Shown here: piece by piece, positions 35,250 through 56,279 of the stretch
Position numbering within the stretch: the first letter of the stretch is position 1
Layout: each line of letters starts with the position of its first letter
The notes under the pieces: generated by a model
Databases searched by the model: none
The model's input: the letters and a program-made list of their open reading frames with translations, nothing else
Told to the model about the DNA's origin: nothing
Program-made: the position numbers and the translations under genes
NCBI GenBank assembly: GCA_008501735.1
Contig: QQUF01000035.1
Coordinates: forward strand, 1 to 64,000
Source of the DNA: Calditrichota bacterium
GTDB taxonomy: Bacteria; CLD3
Reading direction: 5' to 3'
DNA length: 64,000 nucleotides

Positions 35250-38200
35250 TTATTTCATACTTTTAGTTTTTTCCAGTTCTTCGATGCACTTTTTAAAATA
35301 ACTTTTCGAGATTTTAGAATATAATACTTGGTAGAGTTTTAATGCTTCTGTTTTAAATCTTTTGTCAGAAGTCATTTTCCAAAGCTCGTAGTTAAGATTT
35401 GCAATCTCTTCTTCATCTTCAATTTCTTCAAAAATCTCTTTGAGCTTTTTTATTGCACTATTTTTGTCATTGAGTCTAAAATTAATTTTTTCAGTAAGGA
35501 CTCTGTTTGCAAAATTAAAAGTTTTAAAATCCATCTCTTTTGAAACTTTAAAACTATTCTGATTTAAAGTTTCAGCTTCCTCAAATTTCTCTTGCAAAAC
35601 TAATAATTCAATTTTATCTGTAAGTTGTTTAAAGTAGATTTTTAGCTCTAAATCTTTTGAAATTTCAATCGCTTTGTCATAAGATTCCATTGCCTTTTCA
35701 TATTTACCTTTTTCAGTTAGAATAACTCCGATATTACCGAGAGCAATCGAAACTCCTCTTTTGTCTTCGAGTTCTTTACAAACATTTAAGTCTTTTTCAA
35801 AACATTCCAATGCCTTTGAGAAGTTACCTTTATCTCTGTAAGTTGAGCCCAAATTTTCAGAAATAGGTGAGATGAGACTTTTTGAACCTAGCTTTTCGCA
35901 AATCTCTAAGGAATTCTCAAGGTATTCAATCGCTTTATCCAAATCGCCTTTACTTTTAGAAACAACCCCTAAATTTCCAAGTGCAATCGAAGCTCCCATT
36001 TTATCGCCAAGTTCATTACTGATTGCAAATTGCACCTCATAGCTTTTTATAGCTTTTTTAAATTCGCCTTGGTCAGTGTAAACAAGTCCCATATTTCCAA
36101 CAGCAATCGAAATTCCTCTTTTATCTCCTAATTCCTTTTTCAACTTAAGTTGTTTCTTATAGCACAGCATTGCCCTTTTAAAATTCCCTTGGTCACTAAA
36201 AACATTTCCCATATTTCCGATTACATTTGAAATACCTAATTTATCTTTTAGCTTTTCTTTAATTTTCAAAGATTGTTCAACGCACTTCATTGCTTTTTCA
36301 AACTCACCTTTTTCGGAATGAATTAAACCAATGTGTCCGATTGCTTTTGAAATTCCATTTTCGTCTTCTAATTCCTTGCTAATTTCTAATTGTTTTTCAA
36401 AACAATTAATAGCTTTATCGAATTCACCTCTATCGGAAAAAATAAGTCCAATGTGTCCAATTGCTTTTCCGATTCCAATTTTATCGTCTAAGTCTTCGCT
36501 AATCTTTAATTGCATTTCAAAGTATTTCTTTGCTTTCTTAAAATCACTTTGAGTCGTTGCAATAATTCCTATTTCGTTTAGGGAAAGTGCTTCTAAATTT
36601 CTCAACTTTAATTCTTTAGATTCTTGTAAACATTTTTCTGAAACTGAAATTGCTTTTTCAAAATTTCCTATGAGTCTGTAAAGTTCAACCGCTTTAATTT
36701 TGAAATAAATTTCTGTTTTTTTATCTACAAGAATTTTTGCGATTTCAGAAACTTCCAAATACTTTTTTATCGCTTCTTCATTTCGGTATTCCTTTTGATA
36801 CTTTTCTCCCAAATATTTTGTTAGTTCGGAATGTTCTTTTAGAATTTCATTAGAACAATTCCCTTTTTCAAAAATCATTATTCCATTTTCGTCAATTATT
36901 TGATTTGCAACTCCAAGATGAAAAGAATATTGTTCAGCAACTCTGTAAATTTCATCACCTTGAAAATATCTTTTTAAGGTACTGACAATCTGGGAATGAG
37001 TTTCAATTCTAAATTCTTGAGTAGTTTGGTAGTAAATATATTTTTGAACTAAATTGTGGCTGAAATTATAAATTTTTGTGAGCTTTTCATAAACCGTTTC
37101 CGACCTCAAAATCAAAGAATACTTCATTTGTAAATCTTGGACTTTTTTCAGAAGTTTGAAATTACTTTCCTTCAAAATTGAACCAATAATTTCTAAAGAG
37201 AAATCATTTCCTTGGACAGCCGCAATTTGCAGAAAATCTTTAAGTTCTTTGCTTAATCTCTGAAATCTTTCACCAATTACACCGTTCAAAGTTTGAGGTA
37301 AAACTGATAAATCAAAATTATTTTTTGAATAGAATTTTTCACCTTTTCTGAAAATAATTTTACGTTCCTCCAAGTTAAAAAGAAGGACTTTTATAAACAG
37401 GGAGTTACCTCTTGTAAGACCAATAATTTGATTTTTGAAATCTTCACTAAACATATTTTGTGGAAATTGAAAATCAATGTAAATAGAAACTTGCTCATCA
37501 CTCAAGTAGGAAATTTCAATCAAATCTGCGGCATTATAACGTTTGAGATTATTAAACTTTTCTTCCCAAGGGTGTCTGTCCATTTTACCAGAAATCGGAT
37601 TCAGTCTTCCATCTTTCACGTCTTGTTGTCTGAATGAGCCAATCAAAACTAAAGGGTAAGGTGAGTCTTTCAGATTTTTTGAAAGATAGAAAAATAAATT
37701 CATTGAAGAAATATCAGCCCATTGCAAATCGTCGATGTAAATCACAACAGGATTTGTTTCCGCTAATTCTCTAAAACGACTCATTACTCGAACAAAAAAA
37801 TCTTGCTGATTTTGTGAGTAAGTTACTTGCTTTGACTTCTGAATCGCATTCGTGGTTTTATAAATCGCTGCTGTCAAGTTACCGATTACAGGAATTACAT
37901 TCAGCCATTCTCCTGTACATTCTCTTGCAATATTTCTGATTCGGTCTTTAAGTGCGAGTTTTTTTGAGTCGCCTGTTTCGATGTCAAGTTCCTCGTCTTT
38001 CGCAATACTTTTAGCCGTTTCTAAAATTGCAGAAGAAATGTCTCCGATTACAGGAATAGCTTCAAGCCACTGTGAACCTGCTTCGTCAAAAACTGTCTTA
38101 ATTATTTTTTTAAAGTTAGACTTCTTTTCCTCGTCTTTACCTGCTGCTTTGTCTGCGTCAAGTTCGATTAGAACTTCTCTCCAAGGAAGAAAACCTCTTG

Positions 38201-38408
38201 AAACTCCGTCCATATCCAAGCAAGAACCAACTGCTGTTAGAACATTCTTTTCAGAAGTATTGTCACAGTTGTCCATAAAATTTTTAATTAGAGTTGTTTT
38301 ACCGATTCCAGGTTCGCCTGAAATTAGAATTGTAGAACCAATTCCATTTTGGATTGCTTGGTTTAGCTTTTCTTGTAAAACTTCTGTTTCGTATCTTGGA
38401 ATGAACAT
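35250..38408 (-). CDS. STAND-type AAA ATPase with TPR repeats (third gene of the cluster)
   Basis: A 1052-residue large signalling ATPase. Walker A is GEPGIGKT (31-38), with the AAA_16/STAND motif YIDDLQWAD near 223-231. The 180-residue insert between them holds two hydrophobic repeats WLEAIPVIGDISSAIL and WLNVIPVIGNLTAAIY, at about 114-129 and 168-183. A winged-helix-like region follows, then about ten TPR units (540-940; 40-residue period, e.g. KKAKKYFEMQLKISEDL), and a C-terminal module ending in KKCIEELEK-like residues. It is closely similar to the 41912-44578 gene over its first half. It is the last gene of the three and starts 12 bases after the cyclase gene ends. Confidence 0.8.
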   Translation of the reverse strand: MFIPRYETEVLQEKLNQAIQNGIGSTILISGEPGIGKTTLIKNFMDNCDNTSEKNVLTAVGSCLDMDGVSRGFLPWREVLIELDADKAAGKDEEKKSNFKKIIKTVFDEAGSQWLEAIPVIGDISSAILETAKSIAKDEELDIETGDSKKLALKDRIRNIARECTGEWLNVIPVIGNLTAAIYKTTNAIQKSKQVTYSQNQQDFFVRVMSRFRELAETNPVVIYIDDLQWADISSMNLFFYLSKNLKDSPYPLVLIGSFRQQDVKDGRLNPISGKMDRHPWEEKFNNLKRYNAADLIEISYLSDEQVSIYIDFQFPQNMFSEDFKNQIIGLTRGNSLFIKVLLFNLEERKIIFRKGEKFYSKNNFDLSVLPQTLNGVIGERFQRLSKELKDFLQIAAVQGNDFSLEIIGSILKESNFKLLKKVQDLQMKYSLILRSETVYEKLTKIYNFSHNLVQKYIYYQTTQEFRIETHSQIVSTLKRYFQGDEIYRVAEQYSFHLGVANQIIDENGIMIFEKGNCSNEILKEHSELTKYLGEKYQKEYRNEEAIKKYLEVSEIAKILVDKKTEIYFKIKAVELYRLIGNFEKAISVSEKCLQESKELKLRNLEALSLNEIGIIATTQSDFKKAKKYFEMQLKISEDLDDKIGIGKAIGHIGLIFSDRGEFDKAINCFEKQLEISKELEDENGISKAIGHIGLIHSEKGEFEKAMKCVEQSLKIKEKLKDKLGISNVIGNMGNVFSDQGNFKRAMLCYKKQLKLKKELGDKRGISIAVGNMGLVYTDQGEFKKAIKSYEVQFAISNELGDKMGASIALGNLGVVSKSKGDLDKAIEYLENSLEICEKLGSKSLISPISENLGSTYRDKGNFSKALECFEKDLNVCKELEDKRGVSIALGNIGVILTEKGKYEKAMESYDKAIEISKDLELKIYFKQLTDKIELLVLQEKFEEAETLNQNSFKVSKEMDFKTFNFANRVLTEKINFRLNDKNSAIKKLKEIFEEIEDEEEIANLNYELWKMTSDKRFKTEALKLYQVLYSKISKSYFKKCIEELEKTKSMK

Positions 38409-38420
38409 TTGAGGTTTGCC

Positions 38421-41400
38421 TTATTTTTCGAGTTCTTCGATTTTCTTTTTGTAGTCAAATTTTGGGGTTTTTGAATAAAGTTTTTGGTAGAGTTTCAGTG
38501 CTTCAATTTTATATTTTTCTTCGGAATTTATTTTCCAAAGTTCGTAGTTTAGTTCTACAATTTCTTCTATCTCTTCTGTTTCGATGAGCATTTTTTGGAG
38601 TTGTTTTGGCGGGTTTTCTTTATCACCCAATGCAAAGTTTATCTTTTCGGTCAGAACTTTGCCTTCGAAAGTGACGTCTTTTCTGCCAATTTCTTTAGCA
38701 ATTCTTAATACTTCAAAATTAATATTTTGAGCTTCTTTATTTCTCTTAAGTAAAAACAACAATTTAGCTTTGTTGTTTAGTTGACCGCACAAATAATATT
38801 TTATCCCTAATTTTTCGGAAATTTTAATCGCTTTCTCATAACATTCCATCGCTTTGTCGTAGCCGCCTTTACCTTTGTAAACATTTCCCATACTTTCAAC
38901 TGCTATTGAAATTCCTCTTTTCTCTCCAATTTCTTTACTAATTTTTAATTTCTTCTCATAACATTCCATCGCTTTGTCGTAGTCGCCTTTAATCCAGTAA
39001 ACATTTCCCATATTCCCAATTGCGGATGAAATTCCCATTTTATCTCCAACTTCTCCACAGATTTTTAATTGCTCCTCATAACATTCCATCGCTTTGTCGT
39101 AATCGTCTTTAAGCCTGTAAACAAGTCCCATATTTCCAACTGCTATTGAAATTCTTCTTTTATCTCCAATCTCTTCACAGATATTTAAGAGCTTCTCAAA
39201 ACATTCCATCGCTTTGTCGTAGTCTCCTTTGTGTAAGTAAACATTTCCCATATTCCCAACTGCTCTTGAAATTTCACTTTTATCTCCAACTCCTTCACTG
39301 AATCTTAAAAGCTTCTCATAACATTCCATCGCTTTGTCGTAGTCTCCTTTGTGTAAGTAAACATTTCCCATATTTCCAACTGTTTTTGAAACTCCTCTTT
39401 TATCTCCATTTTTCTCACAGAATTTTATGTCCTTCTCATAAAACTCCATCGCTTTGACGTAGTCTCCCTTTACCTCATAAACAATTCCCATATTTCTAAC
39501 TGTTTTTGAAATTTGTCTTTTATTTCCAAGCTCTTCACTAATTTTTAAAGACTTCTCATAAAACTCCACCGCTTTGTTGGAATCGCCTTGTAGGTCAAAC
39601 AACCAACCCAAACTATGATTCGATTTAGCAATTCGTCTTTTATCTTCAATTTTTTGAGATAGTTCCAAAGCTCTTTTGAAAAGATTCTCAGGCTCTTTCC
39701 ATTCACCAATTAATTTTAAAGTTTCTCCTTTTTGAATAAGTGTGTCAATTTCCAAACCTGAAAGGTTCTTAAAACCTTTTAGCTTCTCTAAAAATCTGTC
39801 ATAAAACTGAATTGCTTTTTGATTCTCAAAATTCTCTTGAGCTTGGTCACCAGCTTTTTTGAGAAATTCAATTGCCTTTTCGGTTTCTTCCGCTTTTTCG
39901 TAGTGGTTCGCAAGTTCAACGTAAAATGATTCCAAAATACCTTGGAATTTTTCTTCAATTGTCTCAGCAATTATTTTATGCAAAATTCTGCGGTTAGAAA
40001 TCAAAAGTGAGTTGTAGGCAACTTCTTGTGTGATGACGTGATTAAAAATGTAATACTCGGAAAGGTTTATCAAAATTTGAATAAAATCTCTGTTTTCCAA
40101 CTCAAAAAGCTTTGTCGGAAGCCCTTCAGTTTCACCGAATTTTTTTTCCACTTCTGTCAAAACTTGAACTGAAAACTCCCTTCCGATTACAGATGCCTTT
40201 TGGAGCAAAACTTTTTGCTCAGTTTCCAAACTATCCAACCTTGAAAGAATCAGTGCTGAAAGACTTTGTGGGACAGGAATTTCAGTTTCTTTCAAAGTCA
40301 AGTTCCCTTCTTCTAAAACTATCAAGTCTTTCGATTTTATAAATTCAATCCATTCTTCAACGTAAAACGGATTTCCAGATGATTTTTCTAACAAAAGTGT
40401 TTTGGTTTTTTCAGGAATTTCGATTTCGCCAAGAACTGTTTTGATGAGCTTCATTGAAGTCTTTTTATCAAAAGTAGAGAGTTCGGTTTCACTAAAATCG
40501 GATTCAATTTTAATTTCTTTCTGAACTTCGTAATCAGGTCTGTAAAGCAAAATGAAAAGAATTTGGTTTAAGGGTTTGTTCTCTCGTTTCTCTTCAAGAT
40601 TCAGAGTTCGTAAAAGAAACTTTAGTGCAGAAGTTGAAGATTCTTCCATCCAATGAAGGTCTTCAAAAACTACCAAAAATGGAAAACCCAATTTGTTTGC
40701 TCGAAACGAAGCCGTCTCTAAAAAATATCGTAATGCAATTTGAATGTTAATCTGTAAACCTTGACCTTTTTGTTCTAATCTGACATCGTCATATTTTAAT
40801 CCGAAAAGAAACCCGATTATCGGTAAAGTTTCTCTTAAGTTTTCCTTCTCACTTTCTGTTTCAAGAAATGACTCTAAAGTTTTAAATCCACTTTCCAATT
40901 TTTCACGAATCAATTCTTTTGGGTCGAGTAAAGTGATTCCAAGATAATTTTTGATTAAAGTTGTAAACATTGAGTAAGGACTCGTAGAAACATTTGAACA
41001 AAATCCTTTCGCACTCAAGTTTCTGTGAGGTTGACTTTGAAGTTTCGATTTTAAAAACTCGTAAGCAAGTCTTGACTTTCCTAAACCTGCAACTCCTTTG
41101 AGCCCAACTACAATTGGTTTGGATTCTTCACCAGTCTGTTTCAATTCTAAATTTTTTAAAACTCGTTGGTAAGAATTTTCTAAAAATTCTAATTCTTTGT
41201 CTCTTCCGACAAAAACTGAACGTTTGTGTTGAAGCCATTTCGGTAACTTTTTCCCTTTTGTTGATTGTACCAAAAAAACTTTTATTTTTTCGGCTTTCCC
41301 TTTTACTTCAATTTCATTTTCACCTTCAAAATCAAACCAATCTTCAACAAGTTTCTTGGATCCTTCTGAAATCATAATTCTGTTAGTCGGAGCATTTGAT

Positions 41401-41912
41401 TCCATTCTTGAAGCAAGGTTCACCGCATCACCGTAAACAGTGAAATCTCCTTCTCTTTCGAGTCCAATTTTTCCTGTTGTAACAAGTCCTGTGTTAATTC
41501 CGATTCTAAGATCAAGTTCAATATTTAATTCTTTTGTAATTGGAATCTTTTTGAGAACTGAATTGAAACGATCCAAACTTTCAAGCATTTCCAAACCTGT
41601 GTGAATTGCTCTTTCAGTGTCGTTTTCATTGGCAGATTTTGCACCGAACAAAGCCATCACCAAATCACCTTCGTACTTGTCGATGTAACCGCCGTGTTTC
41701 TCAATGCAATTCGAGAACAGTTTTAGAAGTTTGTCTAAAATATTTCTGACCTGTTCGGGGTCAAGTTTTTCTGAAAGTGAAGTGAAACCTTTGATGTCTG
41801 CAAAAAGAATCGAGACAATTCGTCTTTCACCTTCTTGGAGTTTTACGGTTTGAACTTTTTCTGTTTCTTCAAGTGTAAAATCTTGTAATAAATCATCTAA
41901 TTCATCAAACAT
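38421..41912 (-). CDS. Class III nucleotide cyclase fused to STAND ATPase and TPR repeats
   Basis: A 1163-residue three-domain signalling protein. The N-terminal class III cyclase has metal-binding D39 (LFADIKGF) and D83 (KYEGD), K79 and D156 as adenine-selecting residues, and N165/R169 (AVNLASRM) for the transition state. This predicts active adenylate cyclase. The AAA part has Walker A GVAGLGKS (273-280) and Walker B VVFEDLHW (414-421). Then come about twelve TPRs (700-1050). Seven consecutive repeats are almost identical at the DNA level. The start overlaps the stop of the upstream gene by one base, implying translational coupling. The C-terminal 60 residues match the other two cluster proteins. 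Confidence 0.9.
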   Translation of the reverse strand: MFDELDDLLQDFTLEETEKVQTVKLQEGERRIVSILFADIKGFTSLSEKLDPEQVRNILDKLLKLFSNCIEKHGGYIDKYEGDLVMALFGAKSANENDTERAIHTGLEMLESLDRFNSVLKKIPITKELNIELDLRIGINTGLVTTGKIGLEREGDFTVYGDAVNLASRMESNAPTNRIMISEGSKKLVEDWFDFEGENEIEVKGKAEKIKVFLVQSTKGKKLPKWLQHKRSVFVGRDKELEFLENSYQRVLKNLELKQTGEESKPIVVGLKGVAGLGKSRLAYEFLKSKLQSQPHRNLSAKGFCSNVSTSPYSMFTTLIKNYLGITLLDPKELIREKLESGFKTLESFLETESEKENLRETLPIIGFLFGLKYDDVRLEQKGQGLQINIQIALRYFLETASFRANKLGFPFLVVFEDLHWMEESSTSALKFLLRTLNLEEKRENKPLNQILFILLYRPDYEVQKEIKIESDFSETELSTFDKKTSMKLIKTVLGEIEIPEKTKTLLLEKSSGNPFYVEEWIEFIKSKDLIVLEEGNLTLKETEIPVPQSLSALILSRLDSLETEQKVLLQKASVIGREFSVQVLTEVEKKFGETEGLPTKLFELENRDFIQILINLSEYYIFNHVITQEVAYNSLLISNRRILHKIIAETIEEKFQGILESFYVELANHYEKAEETEKAIEFLKKAGDQAQENFENQKAIQFYDRFLEKLKGFKNLSGLEIDTLIQKGETLKLIGEWKEPENLFKRALELSQKIEDKRRIAKSNHSLGWLFDLQGDSNKAVEFYEKSLKISEELGNKRQISKTVRNMGIVYEVKGDYVKAMEFYEKDIKFCEKNGDKRGVSKTVGNMGNVYLHKGDYDKAMECYEKLLRFSEGVGDKSEISRAVGNMGNVYLHKGDYDKAMECFEKLLNICEEIGDKRRISIAVGNMGLVYRLKDDYDKAMECYEEQLKICGEVGDKMGISSAIGNMGNVYWIKGDYDKAMECYEKKLKISKEIGEKRGISIAVESMGNVYKGKGGYDKAMECYEKAIKISEKLGIKYYLCGQLNNKAKLLFLLKRNKEAQNINFEVLRIAKEIGRKDVTFEGKVLTEKINFALGDKENPPKQLQKMLIETEEIEEIVELNYELWKINSEEKYKIEALKLYQKLYSKTPKFDYKKKIEELEK
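38821..39660. repeat. Seven tandem 120-bp units inside the cyclase gene
   Basis: The DNA repeats with an exact 120-base period from about 38821 to 39660. Each unit encodes one 40-residue TPR. Units at 39181 and 39301 match almost base for base over some 60 bases (CATTCCATCGCTTTGTCGTA is a shared block). Such arrays can grow or shrink by slippage or recombination and change TPR number without frameshift. Confidence 0.85.
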
Positions 41913-44578
41913 TATTTCTCCAATTCTTCAATTTTCTTTTTGTAGTCAAATTTTGGTGTTTTTGAATAAAGTTCTTTGTAGAGCTTCGATGCTTCGATTT
42001 TATACTTTTCTTGAGAAGTCATTTTCCAAAGTTCGTAGTTGAGAATTACAATCTCTTCTTTGTCTTCTGTTTCGGCGAGCATTTGAAGTAGTTGCTTCGG
42101 AGGGTTTACTTTCTCACCGAGTGCAAAATTTAACTTTAAGGAAAGGACTTTACTCTTAAAGATATCACTGACCTTTTTCATTTCTTCTGCTATTTTTATA
42201 CCTTCATCATTGAAAGTCTTTGCTTCACTAAATTCTCCAATTAAAAAAAATAGCTCAGCTTTTTTTATCAATTGAATGCACAAATAATATTTGAATTCTA
42301 TTTCTTTTGAAAGAGCTATTGCTTTGTTATAAAATTCCATCGCCTTAGTAAAATCACCTTTTTGAGTGAGTAAAGAGCCAATATTTAAATTTGCAATCGA
42401 AGTTTCTCTTTGATTTTTGATTGATTCACTAATTTCCAATTTCTTTTTAAAGCACTCCATTGCTTGAGCAAAATTGCCTTTGATTTCGTGAACAACTCCC
42501 ATACTTCCAACTGCCATTGCAACGCCATTTTGATTTCCAATTTCTTCGCAAGTTTTCAATTCTTCTTTATAACATTCCATCGCTTTAGTGTAGTCATTTT
42601 TGTATTTGTATAAAATACCCATAATTCCAACTGTATTGGCAATTTTACTTTTATCACCAATTTCTTTATAAATTTTTAAGGCTTTTTCTAAATAGTCACT
42701 TACTGATTCATACTCATTTTTATTAATCAAGGCTTTACTTAAACCTACACAAGAATCTGCAATTAATTTTGGTAACCCTTCATTTTCCGCTTCTCTCAAA
42801 CAACGTTCATACTTTGAAATTCCTTTGTCAAGTTCACCAATAAATTTATAAATATGAGCTGCACTAAGCACTGCTTCTATCTCAGATTTTTTATCCAAGC
42901 GAATTTTATAAATATTTGACAATTCTAAATATTTATTAATTATCTCCTCATTATGATAACTCGTTCTAAGATCATTCAAGATTACTTTTTGTAGGTCTAA
43001 ATATTTATTAATTATCTCATCACTTACCTGATTTTCTACTAACATTAATTTCCCATTTTCATCAATAATTCCGTTAGAAACTCCAAAATGATAAGAATAA
43101 GATTTAGCTACTTTGTAAATTTCATCACCTTCAAAAAATGATTCTAAAGTCTCAGCTAAAGCATTGTGTAATTCCAAACGAAAATCTTCATTCATTTGAT
43201 AGTAAATATATTTTTGGACTAAATTATGAGTAAAATTGTAAATTTTAGTCAGTCTTTCATAAACTGCTTCGGACTTAAGAATGAGGGAATACTTTTGTTG
43301 TAAGTCGTTTATTTTATCATTTAATATTAAATGATTTTCTTCCAAAAGTGTTCCGATAAGCTCCAAAGAGAAATCACTTCCTTGAACGGAAGCAACCTGC
43401 AAAACTTCTTGTAAATCCTCACTAAGTCTTTGAAACCTTTCTTCAACAATTCCTGAAACTGTTCTTGGAAAAGTTGATAAATCTAAAGTTTCATCTGAAA
43501 AATATTTTCCATCTTTTTCGTAAATCACTTTCCTATCAACAAGATGTAAAAGTAATTCCCTAACAAAGAGTGAATTACCCTTTGTTAAATTTACAATTTC
43601 ACTTTTGAATTTCTTACTAAACCCATTTTGCGGGAATTGTAATTCGATGTAAGAGCTAATTTGACTTTGATTCAAATAAGAAACTTCTAATAATTCTGCG
43701 GCACCGTAATTCTCAAGATTTTTAATTTTTTCTTCCCAAGGATGTTTTTCCATTGCTCCTGTAAATAGGTTAATTCTTCCATCTTTTACATCTTGTGGTC
43801 GAAATGAGCCAATTAGAACTAAAGGATAAGGAATTTCATTAAGGTTTTTCGCAATATAGAAAAACAAATTCATCGAAGAAATGTCTGCCCATTGTAAATC
43901 ATCAATGTAAATCACAACTGGATTAGATTCTGCCAATTCACGAAGTTTTGACATTACGTGAATAAAAAAGTCCTGCTGATTTTGCGTGTTACTAATTTTC
44001 TTCGTTTTTTGTAACTCATTTGTAGTTTTGTAAATTGCTGCTGTCAAATTCCCGACAACAGGAATTACGTTAAGCCAATCACCTTTACATTCTTTTGCTA
44101 CATTTTTAAGTCTGTCTTTAAGTGCAAGTTTCTTGGAATCGCCAGTTTCTATATCTATCACTTCATCTTTTGAGATTGTTTTTGCAGTTTCAAAGATTGC
44201 AGAAGAAATGTCTCCAATTACAGGAATAGCTTCAAGCCATTGTGAACCTGCTTCATCGAAAACTGTCTTAACAATTTTTTTGAAATTAGACTTTTTCTCT
44301 TCGTCTTTACCTGCTGCTTTGTCTGCGTCAAGTTCAATTAGAACTTCTCGCCAAGGCAAAAAACCTCTCGAAACTCCGTCCATATCCAAGCAAGAACCAA
44401 TTGCTGTGAGAACATTCTTTTCTGAAGCTTTGTCACAATTATCCATAAAGTTTTTGATTAAAGTAGTTTTACCGATTCCGGGTTCACCTGAAATTAGAAT
44501 TGTTGAACCAATTCCGTTTTCGATTGCTTGGCTTAATTTTGTTTGTAAAACTTCTGTTTCGTGTCTTGGAATGAACAT
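41912..44578 (-). CDS. STAND-type AAA ATPase with TPR repeats (first gene of the cluster)
   Basis: An 888-residue paralogue of the 35250-38408 protein. Walker A GEPGIGKT (31-38), the insert with twin hydrophobic repeats WLEAIPVIGDISSAIF (114-129) and WLNVIPVVGNLTAAIY (168-183), Walker B VVIYIDDLQW (221-230), a middle region, then fewer TPRs (about 590-780) than its sister. The C-terminal module NPPKQLLQMLAETEDKEE to YELWKMTSQEKYKIEA is nearly the same in all three proteins. It is the promoter-proximal gene of the cluster, divergent from the zinc-ribbon gene, so regulation probably occurs at about 44580-44680, where I see no clear operator. Confidence 0.82.
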   Translation of the reverse strand: MFIPRHETEVLQTKLSQAIENGIGSTILISGEPGIGKTTLIKNFMDNCDKASEKNVLTAIGSCLDMDGVSRGFLPWREVLIELDADKAAGKDEEKKSNFKKIVKTVFDEAGSQWLEAIPVIGDISSAIFETAKTISKDEVIDIETGDSKKLALKDRLKNVAKECKGDWLNVIPVVGNLTAAIYKTTNELQKTKKISNTQNQQDFFIHVMSKLRELAESNPVVIYIDDLQWADISSMNLFFYIAKNLNEIPYPLVLIGSFRPQDVKDGRINLFTGAMEKHPWEEKIKNLENYGAAELLEVSYLNQSQISSYIELQFPQNGFSKKFKSEIVNLTKGNSLFVRELLLHLVDRKVIYEKDGKYFSDETLDLSTFPRTVSGIVEERFQRLSEDLQEVLQVASVQGSDFSLELIGTLLEENHLILNDKINDLQQKYSLILKSEAVYERLTKIYNFTHNLVQKYIYYQMNEDFRLELHNALAETLESFFEGDEIYKVAKSYSYHFGVSNGIIDENGKLMLVENQVSDEIINKYLDLQKVILNDLRTSYHNEEIINKYLELSNIYKIRLDKKSEIEAVLSAAHIYKFIGELDKGISKYERCLREAENEGLPKLIADSCVGLSKALINKNEYESVSDYLEKALKIYKEIGDKSKIANTVGIMGILYKYKNDYTKAMECYKEELKTCEEIGNQNGVAMAVGSMGVVHEIKGNFAQAMECFKKKLEISESIKNQRETSIANLNIGSLLTQKGDFTKAMEFYNKAIALSKEIEFKYYLCIQLIKKAELFFLIGEFSEAKTFNDEGIKIAEEMKKVSDIFKSKVLSLKLNFALGEKVNPPKQLLQMLAETEDKEEIVILNYELWKMTSQEKYKIEASKLYKELYSKTPKFDYKKKIEELEK

Positions 44579-53341: not shown

Positions 53342-54601
53342 CTAAAACATTGTTGTTAGCATTGCTCTGAAAGAATAAGTATCAGAATCTACGTTCTTAA
53401 TGTCTTGGTCTGAGTAAGCAACTTTGAGCAAAATTGAACGCGAAAGCTTATAGCCAAATCCGATTGAGTATCGAGTTACGTCGTTATCCCAATCTTCTTT
53501 TTGCTTTGTTACTAATCCGGAGTCTATTCTTTCTTGTGTAACAATTCTGTCGTCAGGAGTTGAGTAATTGTCGAATTTTTGAAAAATTAACTTCTCGAAC
53601 CTCGCTGAAATAAAACTTCCACTCAAAAACGGAGGTTCAAACTTTAAGTCAGTGTAAAATGAATAATTTTCCAATTCAAATTCTATTAATTTTTCTCCGC
53701 CTTCTGTTACGAAAATTCCTCTTCTGTAAGTTGGAACTTTCCATTTAGAGTAAATTGCTTCTCCTGAAAACTCAAAATAAGAATAAGATAAAACCCAGTC
53801 AGTTCCAAGAGTCATTTGGTAATCATCTTTGTAATCAAACCCTAATTCGTTAAGGGTATCTGCTTGCATAAAACTTCCATAACCAAAAGAAAATCCTTGT
53901 TGCCACCACATTTTTGGTTGCAAACCAAGCCTTCCTGCAAAGCCATAATTTGTGTTGTTTAAATAGGCTTCCGAAGCAGAAATTGCAGCATTCAAGACAG
54001 CAACTTCAAGGTTCATTTTTTCTTCTAAAATTGTCCAGTTGAAAGAAGCACCTGTTGTGTAACCACCGTAATAAATCGTTGAAAGTCCAGTGTGTGAATT
54101 ATCTCCATAATCACCTGAATTTCCTGCAATTCTCCAAAGTCCAAGTTTTGGTGTTACATTTACAAAATAGCCATAAGCAAGTGGCATATTTACTAAAGGA
54201 TTACTAACGGAAAGTTGCCTTCTTGGGTAAAGTCCAAAAGGCGTAATAAACCTTCCAAGTGAAGCACTTAGTGGTAAGTTCGAAGAATTCCAATCCAAAG
54301 AAGCTAAGGAAAGCCGCAAGTTGTTAAGTTTTCCACTTCCCCAAGTGTCGAATTGCATTCTTGTGTTGACCGAAAAATTATCGTCAATCCAAGCTGAGCC
54401 AAACAAATTAAATTGGCTAATCGAAAGGTGAGGTTTGCGGAAATCATTGTTAATTTCGTTTGCAATCCATTTTGAATCTTTTCCACCTGCGGAAAGTTCG
54501 AGGTCAAGGCTTCCGCCAAATTCAATTTGTGCAAAGGAGAGTTTCGCACTAAAAATTAAACTTAAAGCCAAAAAACTTTTAAGAAATAATGTTTTTTTCA
54601 T
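53342..54601 (-). CDS. Predicted outer-membrane beta-barrel protein
   Basis: A 419-residue exported protein with a signal peptide (FLALSLIFSAKLSFA). The mature chain shows alternating hydrophobic strands and many aromatics, closing with YSFRAMLTTMF (last residue Phe), which signals outer-membrane insertion. It resembles porin-like or phosphate-selective porin-like barrels but no family is certain. Its first 23 bases overlap the cyclase gene's end, so expression is tied to the cyclase. Confidence 0.72.
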   Translation of the reverse strand: MKKTLFLKSFLALSLIFSAKLSFAQIEFGGSLDLELSAGGKDSKWIANEINNDFRKPHLSISQFNLFGSAWIDDNFSVNTRMQFDTWGSGKLNNLRLSLASLDWNSSNLPLSASLGRFITPFGLYPRRQLSVSNPLVNMPLAYGYFVNVTPKLGLWRIAGNSGDYGDNSHTGLSTIYYGGYTTGASFNWTILEEKMNLEVAVLNAAISASEAYLNNTNYGFAGRLGLQPKMWWQQGFSFGYGSFMQADTLNELGFDYKDDYQMTLGTDWVLSYSYFEFSGEAIYSKWKVPTYRRGIFVTEGGEKLIEFELENYSFYTDLKFEPPFLSGSFISARFEKLIFQKFDNYSTPDDRIVTQERIDSGLVTKQKEDWDNDVTRYSIGFGYKLSRSILLKVAYSDQDIKNVDSDTYSFRAMLTTMF

Positions 54602-56279
54602 TTAAAATCTCCACAATTTCGAGTTGATTTGTAAAACCTTTGAATGACATTTTTAGAGAATCACCTGTAAGAAATTCTTTCATTACAGTTTCTTCCAACA
54701 AATCTTTTCTAACCAAAATCTGATTTGCTTTTGCGGCACTGCACAAACGGGCAGCAAGATTTACCGCTGAACCGATTACAGTGTAATCCATTCTTTCTTT
54801 TGCTCCCATATTTCCAAGAATCATCGGACCGAAATTCACTCCAATTCCAATGTAAATCGGAACAGGGTCAGTTTTGTGTTCTTCTTTGATTCTCTTCTGA
54901 ATTTCGATTGCACACTCGATTGCACTTTGTAACGCATTTTCTCCCGAAAAAAGTGCAACCATTTCATCACCGACAAATTTATCAACTGAGCCGTTGAACT
55001 CTTTCACAATCTCAGCTTGAAAACTTAGGTAACGGTTTAGCATCGAAATTACTTCCTCAGGAGTTCTTTTTTCACTAAAAGCTGTAAAGCCTCGAATATC
55101 TGAGAATAAAACTGCAAGTTCTTTTTTTTCACCGCCAAGATTGAGTTCATTACTTGAAGAATCTTTAATCATTTCGATTGTGTGGCTTCCGACGTACTTC
55201 ATCAAATGCATTCTTTCACGAAGTCCGATGAGCATTTCGTTAAAAGTCTGTGTCAGAAGTCCGATTTCGTCTTTTGTTGTTGGCTTAAGCTCGACGTTCA
55301 AATTTCCTTCTTTAACTTTATTCATTCCACTAACTAAGTTCAAAATCGGTTTTGAAAAAGTTCTTCCAAGTGAAAAAGCTAAAATCAAAGTCAGCCCGAA
55401 ACCTACTCCTGCAACGATTAGAATATTTTTTTCAATTACGTCCAAAACTTTTAGAGCAACAGGCTTAGGAATTGTTGCAAGGTAAAAAGCTGAGATTCCC
55501 ACTCCAAGAGGACTGATAAAAGCGAAGACCTCTTCCATTGCCAAATCTGTTTCGTAAGGATTTGTTGGAATTAAGTATTTTAAAACAGAATCGGCTAATG
55601 TTCCATTTTCCTTGAGAAAGTCGTTGAAATAATCTTGGGTCAAAAATTCATTGGTTGAAGCGATAAGTTTTTTATCGCAAACAAAGTGAATGTCAAATTG
55701 TGAGTTGGCTTTGAGTTCAACTGCTTCAACTTTTGTAATTTGCATTCCCAAAGTCAAAGTTCCGTAAATCTCGTCTCCGATGTAAATTGGAACAGTTACA
55801 ATTTGGTAAATTTTTTCGTCAATTTCCCAAAGTTCGGGCCAAGTAGTTTTGATTTCAGGCTCAACACCTTTTAGAGCTTTGGAAATGCTTTGCTTGGAAG
55901 TTAAGTCTTGTCCGTAGCGTTCAGGTTCGCCAAGCTTTGCCAAAACATTTCCTTTTCTGTCAGTAACAATGAAAAGGTCAACCTTTGAGAAAAGTGAAAA
56001 TTCTTCAACACTTACGTAAACTGAAGTTGGGCTTTCAAGTTCAACGTTTGCTTTAAAAGTAGAGTTTTCTGCAATTAGGTAAGCTGACTCAACTAATCTG
56101 TCATAACGAAGGTTTTGGTCACGTTCAAAAACAATTCTTGTTTGGTTAAAATCGTCAATCAATTTTTCAAATAAGACTTCGGTTAATGTTTTGTCAAGTC
56201 CTATCAAAAAACCTAAAAGAATTCCAGCAGAAAGACCTGCGAGAGATAAAAATAATTTTGTTTGAATATTGAACTTCAC
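54579..56279 (-). CDS. Membrane nucleotide cyclase with Cache sensor and HAMP
   Basis: A 566-residue receptor cyclase starting at GTG 56279 with AAGGA upstream. Membrane segments at about 10-28 and 282-304 flank a 250-residue periplasmic dCache-like sensor (DLFIVTDRKGNVLAKLGE, YQIVTVPIYIGDEIYGTL). A HAMP linker (about 305-357) leads to a class III cyclase with D394 (LFSDIRGF), K434 and D438 (VDKFVGDE), D498 (MDYTVIG), N507 and R511, predicting a functional adenylate-type enzyme. It lies in the operon cupredoxin-cyclase-barrel-hemerythrin, suggesting a sensor for redox-linked or metal ligands. Confidence 0.93.
   Translation of the reverse strand: MKFNIQTKLFLSLAGLSAGILLGFLIGLDKTLTEVLFEKLIDDFNQTRIVFERDQNLRYDRLVESAYLIAENSTFKANVELESPTSVYVSVEEFSLFSKVDLFIVTDRKGNVLAKLGEPERYGQDLTSKQSISKALKGVEPEIKTTWPELWEIDEKIYQIVTVPIYIGDEIYGTLTLGMQITKVEAVELKANSQFDIHFVCDKKLIASTNEFLTQDYFNDFLKENGTLADSVLKYLIPTNPYETDLAMEEVFAFISPLGVGISAFYLATIPKPVALKVLDVIEKNILIVAGVGFGLTLILAFSLGRTFSKPILNLVSGMNKVKEGNLNVELKPTTKDEIGLLTQTFNEMLIGLRERMHLMKYVGSHTIEMIKDSSSNELNLGGEKKELAVLFSDIRGFTAFSEKRTPEEVISMLNRYLSFQAEIVKEFNGSVDKFVGDEMVALFSGENALQSAIECAIEIQKRIKEEHKTDPVPIYIGIGVNFGPMILGNMGAKERMDYTVIGSAVNLAARLCSAAKANQILVRKDLLEETVMKEFLTGDSLKMSFKGFTNQLEIVEILNEKNIIS

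What the first reader, a model, noticed from the sequence alone, without database searches (positions are those of the whole stretch)
35250..44578. Three-gene cluster of STAND ATPases, one fused to a nucleotide cyclase
Three large proteins lie head to tail on the minus strand with a one-base overlap and a 12-base gap. All share a P-loop STAND/AAA_16 domain, TPR repeats and a common C-terminal module (NYELWK then KKKIEELEK). The central one has every catalytic residue of a class III cyclase. STAND proteins often detect a trigger through their repeats, and the cyclase would turn that into a second messenger. I know of no named system with this exact composition; that is inference.
Basis: partly seen in the sequence, partly recalled or inferred. 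Interest (0 to 1): 0.78.

Follow-up and report, generated by a model that had tools for sequence, protein, structure and literature searches.

The report
STAND receptor genes around a cyclase
Three neighbouring bacterial genes encode ATP-driven switch proteins, one of them fused to a signal-making cyclase; the cyclase gene is an ordinary, widespread type, while its two neighbours belong to a locally multiplied, fast-changing receptor family so far seen only in this genome.

Summary
In detail: three head-to-tail minus-strand genes (A 41912-44578, B 38421-41912, C 35250-38408), all STAND NTPase plus TPR, with an apparently intact class III cyclase on B. The joint-system reading is only weakly supported. 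B's ortholog in the only other genome held of its family (68% identity) stands alone, no A/C-type gene exists in that genome, and cyclase-STAND-TPR proteins like B occur in 35 of 386 sampled genomes, with no cyclase-free STAND-TPR neighbour in 19 inspected neighbourhoods. A and C belong instead to an expansion of at least 11 copies seen only in this genome: a six-gene tandem array 37 kb beyond A and a repeat-broken contig, mostly with a constant 12-base spacer. Their NTPase is nearly invariant (dN about 0.03), their TPR arrays hypervariable (dN about 0.7), with gene-conversion tracts, including between A and B at the 3' end. The shared C-terminal module is a TPR end-cap found in other, unrelated genomes. 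Most likely B is a ligand-gated adenylate cyclase embedded in a growing family of effector-less STAND-TPR receptors; whether A and C feed B is unknown. New variant of a known kind.

The parts
41912..44578 (-). gene A, 888 aa: effector-less STAND NTPase (AAA_16) + arm + TPR superhelix + C-terminal cap
38421..41912 (-). gene B, 1163 aa: class III cyclase + STAND NTPase + TPR + cap
35250..38408 (-). gene C, 1052 aa: effector-less STAND NTPase + TPR + cap
41271..41819 (-). class III cyclase catalytic domain of B (D39, K79, D83, T158, N165, R169)
   Evidence: PF00211
39813..41213 (-). STAND NOD of B (Walker A from residue 273, Walker B LVVFEDLHW, GNPFY motif)
38833..39589 (-). 120-bp (40-aa) tandem TPR units of B, 6.3 copies, 81% matches
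38424..38657 (-). C-terminal TPR cap of B (NYELWK...KKKIEELEK)
43079..44578 (-). STAND NOD of A; Walker A from residue 31, Walker B from 222; fold matches Apaf-1, MalT, CED-4, PH0952
43988..44254 (-). insert in A's nucleotide-binding domain (aa 109-197): two copies of a WLxxIPVxGxxxxAIxxT segment, conserved in all paralogs, low model confidence
42089..42961 (-). hypervariable TPR superhelix of A (aa about 540-830)
41915..42106 (-). C-terminal TPR cap of A (aa 825-888); last 50 aa 84% identical to B's
38399..38422 (-). B-to-C junction, exact match to the array-type junction AAGGCAAAYCNCAAATGTTCATTC

Best explanation
B is a STAND-gated adenylate cyclase. A ligand, probably a peptide or protein, binds the concave TPR groove; this releases the arm/sensor brake on the NOD, ATP replaces ADP, the protein multimerises and neighbouring cyclase domains pair into active dimers that make cAMP, read by some of the genome's seven cNMP-binding proteins. 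A and C are two members of a receptor family of at least 11 copies, seen only in this genome among those searched, that has the same switch and sensor but no output domain; it multiplies by tandem duplication, is homogenised in its NTPase by gene conversion, and varies in its TPR sensor. A, B and C are probably one transcript and made together; A and C most likely modulate or feed B or act through protein contacts, rather than forming an ancient three-part system. Shown: architecture, intact motifs, predicted fold of A's NOD, family expansion, divergence pattern, solitary B ortholog. Inferred: cAMP product, ligand type, multimerisation, single transcript, any A/C-B contact.
For: Domains and motifs; A's NOD models with confidence once aligned with 17 distant homologs and its best folds include Apaf-1, MalT, CED-4 and the TPR-STAND PH0952; the TPR part resembles LGN/Pins peptide-binding TPRs. 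MalT and PH0952 give the arm/sensor-release mechanism (PMC4381067, PMC6468293). Own genome: 11 class III cyclase domains, 7 cNMP-binding domains over cut-off. Expansion and constant spacers; dN 0.03 in the NOD versus about 0.7 in the TPRs; conversion tracts p=0.0002 for four pairs within aa 1-280 and a 612-nt identical R1/R3 3' end; B/A 3' exchange. Solitary B ortholog.
Against: No expression, ligand or activity data. NODs of A and B are only about 18% identical, so mixed NOD rings are not obvious. Excess change at TPR concave positions was significant in only one of three close pairs (p=0.0018, 0.18, 0.72) and dN/dS is mostly below 1. Only two genomes of this family are held.
Confidence: 0.55

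Rival explanations
1. Sensor/helper network: A, C and the array genes are ligand-specific sensors that, once activated, recruit and nucleate the single cyclase helper B through the shared TPR/cap region, as NAIPs do for NLRC4 or sensor NLRs for NRC helpers.
For: Many diversified effector-less sensors, one adjacent helper with an output; translational coupling; B's cap homogenised with A's; fold matches include Apaf-1 and plant NRC2.
Against: NODs of A and B about 18% identical; the six array copies are not next to a cyclase; the cap is found in cyclases of unrelated genomes; B exists without A/C partners in the sister genus.
Confidence: 0.15
2. Unlinked neighbours: B was caught up in the array by recombination at repeated 3' ends and shares only a transcript with A and C; A and C act on other targets.
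For: Array-type junction between B and C; B alone beside uvrB in the sister genus while this genome's array lies about 2 kb from uvrB, suggesting rearrangement; repeats drive conversion.
Against: Close spacing and the A-B overlap are retained; B's cap stays matched to A's. Decay is unlikely: all complete copies are open with intact motifs and a strongly conserved NOD.
Confidence: 0.25
3. A phage-defence cluster (Pycsar-like or Avs-like) in which B's cyclic nucleotide triggers cell death.
For: PADLOC PycC models hit B's cyclase (best 4.3e-23); STAND plus hypervariable sensor is typical of immune receptors (PMC4986451, PMC10907252).
Against: PycC hits reflect the shared class III fold; no effector with a cNMP sensor nearby, neighbours look like housekeeping genes (CcmF, SPOR, GNAT, DoxX, FMN reductase, Zn-ribbon); no Avs model hit.
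Confidence: 0.05

Closest known systems
Cyclase-STAND-TPR proteins (class III cyclase + AAA_16 + TPR; partial match to TIGR03903 TOMM kinase/cyclase; analogous to mammalian soluble adenylyl cyclase ADCY10)
   Same: B has the same order cyclase - NTPase - TPR; relatives in 35 of 386 sampled genomes
   Different: one cyclase domain, not two as in ADCY10; lacks the kinase of TIGR03903 (210 bits against a cut-off of 705.75)
Effector-less AAA_16 + TPR proteins such as Deinococcus aetherius WP_264778436.1, and the AAA_16 protein Parabacteroides distasonis WP_228002710.1
   Same: A aligns from residue 2 over the NTPase (and TPR for Deinococcus) at 22-26% identity, no output domain recognised by Pfam
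   Different: those are single genes; A/C has a duplicated WLxxIPVxG segment (Walker A-B spacing 191 against 148-152) and a multi-copy tandem expansion
MalT and PH0952 (STAND with TPR-type sensor)
   Same: NOD fold, arm and TPR sensor
   Different: MalT carries a DNA-binding output domain; A/C carry none recognised, B a cyclase
Fungal NLR families with TPR/ANK/WD repeats of high internal conservation (PMC4986451)
   Same: conserved NOD, variable repeat number and sequence, within-gene repeat homogenisation in B
   Different: B's units average 63% aa identity, below the 85% used there; positive selection not demonstrated here

Membership tests
STAND NTPases | Walker A and Walker B, NBD-HD plus winged-helix NOD | tested here: met
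   motifs in A, B, C; A model mostly at pLDDT 80-93 outside the insert, best folds Apaf-1, MalT, CED-4
STAND NTPases | C-terminal superstructure-forming repeat sensor | tested here: met
   TPR families and confident TPR superhelix
STAND NTPases | inducer-dependent ADP/ATP exchange and multimerisation | not testable with these tools
   needs purified protein
Class III nucleotide cyclases (B) | PF00211 domain with two metal Asp, purine-selecting pair, Asn/Arg transition-state pair | tested here: met
   E 9.9e-36; D39, D83, K79, T158, N165, R169
Class III nucleotide cyclases (B) | catalytic production of cAMP or cGMP | not testable with these tools
   Lys/Thr pair suggests ATP as substrate (general knowledge)
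Soluble adenylyl cyclase (ADCY10) type | twin cyclase domains C1-C2 followed by NTPase | tested here: not met
   only one cyclase domain in B
TOMM kinase/cyclase fusion (TIGR03903) | score above curated cut-off, N-terminal kinase | tested here: not met
   210.6 bits against 705.75; no kinase domain
Pycsar | cyclase gene next to a cyclic-nucleotide-sensing effector (PycTM/PycTIR) | tested here: not met
   no such neighbour
Avs (AVAST) | Avs profile match with effector domain fused to STAND | tested here: not met
   no Avs model among PADLOC hits; A and C have no recognised effector
   A/C absent from the sister genus and from the other genomes searched; B alone there; only two genomes of the family are held

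The most novel reading that the evidence does not exclude
A bacterial sensor/helper receptor network: a growing array of diversified effector-less STAND-TPR sensors, kept alike in their switch and cap by gene conversion, that signal through one co-transcribed cyclase helper carrying the same cap.
Probability: 0.12. Interest if true: 0.78.

Novelty: new variant of a known kind. Interest (0 to 1): 0.42.

Why it matters
Bacterial STAND receptors are usually described one gene at a time with a fused output. Here a bacterium carries at least 11 near-copies without output domains, with an almost invariant switch and hypervariable sensors, the pattern known from plant and fungal immune receptors, and two of the copies flank a cyclase that has an obvious, measurable output. 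That makes the question whether effector-less bacterial STANDs signal through partners directly testable with a cAMP assay. B itself is ordinary.

Tried and rejected
Mobile-element origin: no relative in viral contigs or phage records; plasmid matches were all below 60% identity. The first structure model of full-length A failed in the NOD (pLDDT about 30-40) because only nine paralogs were aligned; adding 17 distant homologs fixed this. A unique inserted domain in A: the insert looks like a duplication of a segment present once in Deinococcus and Parabacteroides relatives; Pfam gave only sub-threshold hits to it. Positive selection at TPR concave positions: suggestive, significant in one of three pairs. 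An inversion that split an original A-B-C-R1-R6 array next to uvrB was considered; flanking genes in G001 neither confirm nor exclude it. Promoter/terminator scans were at chance level. Literature searches found no paper describing this gene arrangement in the open-access library.

Full report
Observation. Three open reading frames lie on the minus strand at the stated coordinates: A (41912-44578, 888 aa), B (38421-41912, 1163 aa) and C (35250-38408, 1052 aa). A and B overlap by one base and B and C are separated by 12 bases. Pfam AAA_16 and TPR families are above cut-off in all three; PF00211 (class III cyclase) is found only in B, E 9.9e-36. Alignment with CyaB (3r5g) and with eight relatives shows D39 and D83 (metals), K79 and T158 (purine selection), N165 and R169 (transition state) all in place; the Lys/Thr pair is that of class IIIb adenylate cyclases (general knowledge). 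A and C start directly with the P-loop region (Walker A GEPGIGKTT from residue 31) and have no recognised output domain.

What the finding did not see. A search of the window's own genome showed that A and C are two of at least 11 copies: six genes R1-R6 in a plus-strand tandem array at contig C41:81956-100105, 37 kb beyond A, and contig C35 (6 kb) with one complete gene and the ends of two others, broken inside the repeats. Successive array genes are 12 bases apart with a near-constant junction (AAGGCAAAYCnCAA-ATG), which also joins B to C exactly. The array contains no cyclase.

Evolution of the A/C family. Along the protein, dN between paralogs is about 0.03 in most of residues 1-280, 0.15-0.2 in 280-520, about 0.7 in the TPR part (540-830) and 0.15 in the C-terminal cap, with dS about 0.4-1.8. 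Conversion-like tracts within residues 1-280 are significant for four pairs (p=0.0002 each, 36 pairs tested), and R1 and R3 share a 612-nt identical 3' end. In the last 50 residues B is closer to A (84% aa) than to its own ortholog (67%), whereas about 100 residues upstream it is closer to the ortholog (68% against 55%), so exchange has probably also involved the cyclase gene. B's own TPR units are homogenised: at nucleotide level 79% within B, 81% within the ortholog, 74% between, and copy number differs. Short-read assembly of such repeats can be chimeric; the array structure deserves long-read confirmation.

Test of the joint-system idea. The class to which the genome belongs holds only nine genomes. 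In the single family relative, G001 (100% complete by the table), B has a 68%-identical ortholog standing alone beside uvrB and what read as ATP-synthase genes, and the best match to A is merely the TPR/cap of that cyclase. Among 386 genomes A's NTPase has, outside its own genome, only two matches at E<=1e-25, both limited to a generic Walker B-to-winged-helix stretch at 28% identity in proteins with other outputs (only the best few candidates per genome were scored). B-like proteins occur in 35 of 386 genomes; in 19 neighbourhoods holding such a cyclase gene none has an adjacent cyclase-free STAND-TPR gene, though some have two cyclase-STAND genes close together. The shared C-terminal module models as the last helices of the TPR superhelix and recurs in cyclases of unrelated genomes, so it is an end-cap and not a mark of a system.

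Fold and relatives of A. With 26 sequences the NOD of A models mostly at pLDDT 80-93 except for residues 109-197; its best PDB folds are Apaf-1, MalT, CED-4, Cdc6 and PH0952. The low-confidence part looks like a duplication of a segment (WLEAIPVIGDISSAIFETAK / WLNVIPVVGNLTAAIYKTT) that AAA_16 proteins of Deinococcus and Parabacteroides have once. So A's architecture is not new; its expansion is.

Mechanism. STANDs with TPR-type sensors are held shut by arm-NBD and sensor-NBD contacts; inducer binding opens the NOD, ADP is exchanged for ATP and the protein multimerises (PMC4381067, PMC6468293). In B this would bring cyclase domains together, since class III cyclases act as dimers (general knowledge). 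The genome has 11 class III cyclase domains and seven cNMP-binding domains over cut-off, so cAMP signalling is plausible. What A and C do is open: the modest hypothesis is modulation of B or another partner; the bold one is a sensor/helper network. NODs of A and B share about 18% identity, which argues against simple mixed rings; the shared TPR/cap argues for possible contact.

Known kinds. Fungal NLRs with TPR repeats show repeat homogenisation and positive selection on the concave face (PMC4986451); here concave positions change more, significantly in one pair of three. Multicellular bacteria diversify STAND-linked sensors with retroelements (PMC10907252) and carry diversified NTPase conflict systems with cyclases (PMC7159879); no retroelement was looked for here. 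Pycsar, Avs and TOMM kinase/cyclase membership fail on tested features.

Verdict. Real and correctly read locally, but not a conserved three-part system on the evidence available. B is a member of a widespread type; A and C are part of a striking, apparently lineage-specific expansion of effector-less STAND-TPR receptors. New variant of a known kind, moderate interest.

Noticed in passing
G000:C41:81956-100105 (L022, L025): Six-gene tandem array of A/C-type STAND-TPR genes with 12-base spacers; R6 lacks the C-terminal cap.
   Followed up: yes
G000:C35 (L024): 6-kb contig carrying one complete and two partial further copies, broken inside the repeats.
   Followed up: partly
L072-L089 (contigs C55, C12, C38, C32, C24, C5, C57, C50, C48, C47 and others): More than ten giant proteins of about 1,600-1,700 aa, many with a Ser/Thr kinase motif, then STAND NTPase, TPR and what looks like a Fis-type helix-turn-helix end, several next to about 490-aa proteins ending in a type IX-like sorting tail (SSGTYFYKISAGTFTQTNKMILLK).
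   Followed up: partly
L060:3623-6928 (G001:C75): A B-type paralog that has lost both metal-binding aspartates (FAHVKD, KIENEM): probably a dead cyclase.
   Followed up: no
G001:C13 (L058) and G000:C41:102033-104048: uvrB lies beside the solitary B ortholog in G001 and about 2 kb from the STAND array in this genome, hinting at a rearranged common locus.
   Followed up: partly
window 54579-56279: A separate HAMP-linked class III cyclase (566 aa) in the same window.
   Followed up: no
G113, G249, G371, G111 (L133, L136, L137, L130): Pairs of cyclase-STAND-TPR genes lying within a few kb of each other.
   Followed up: no
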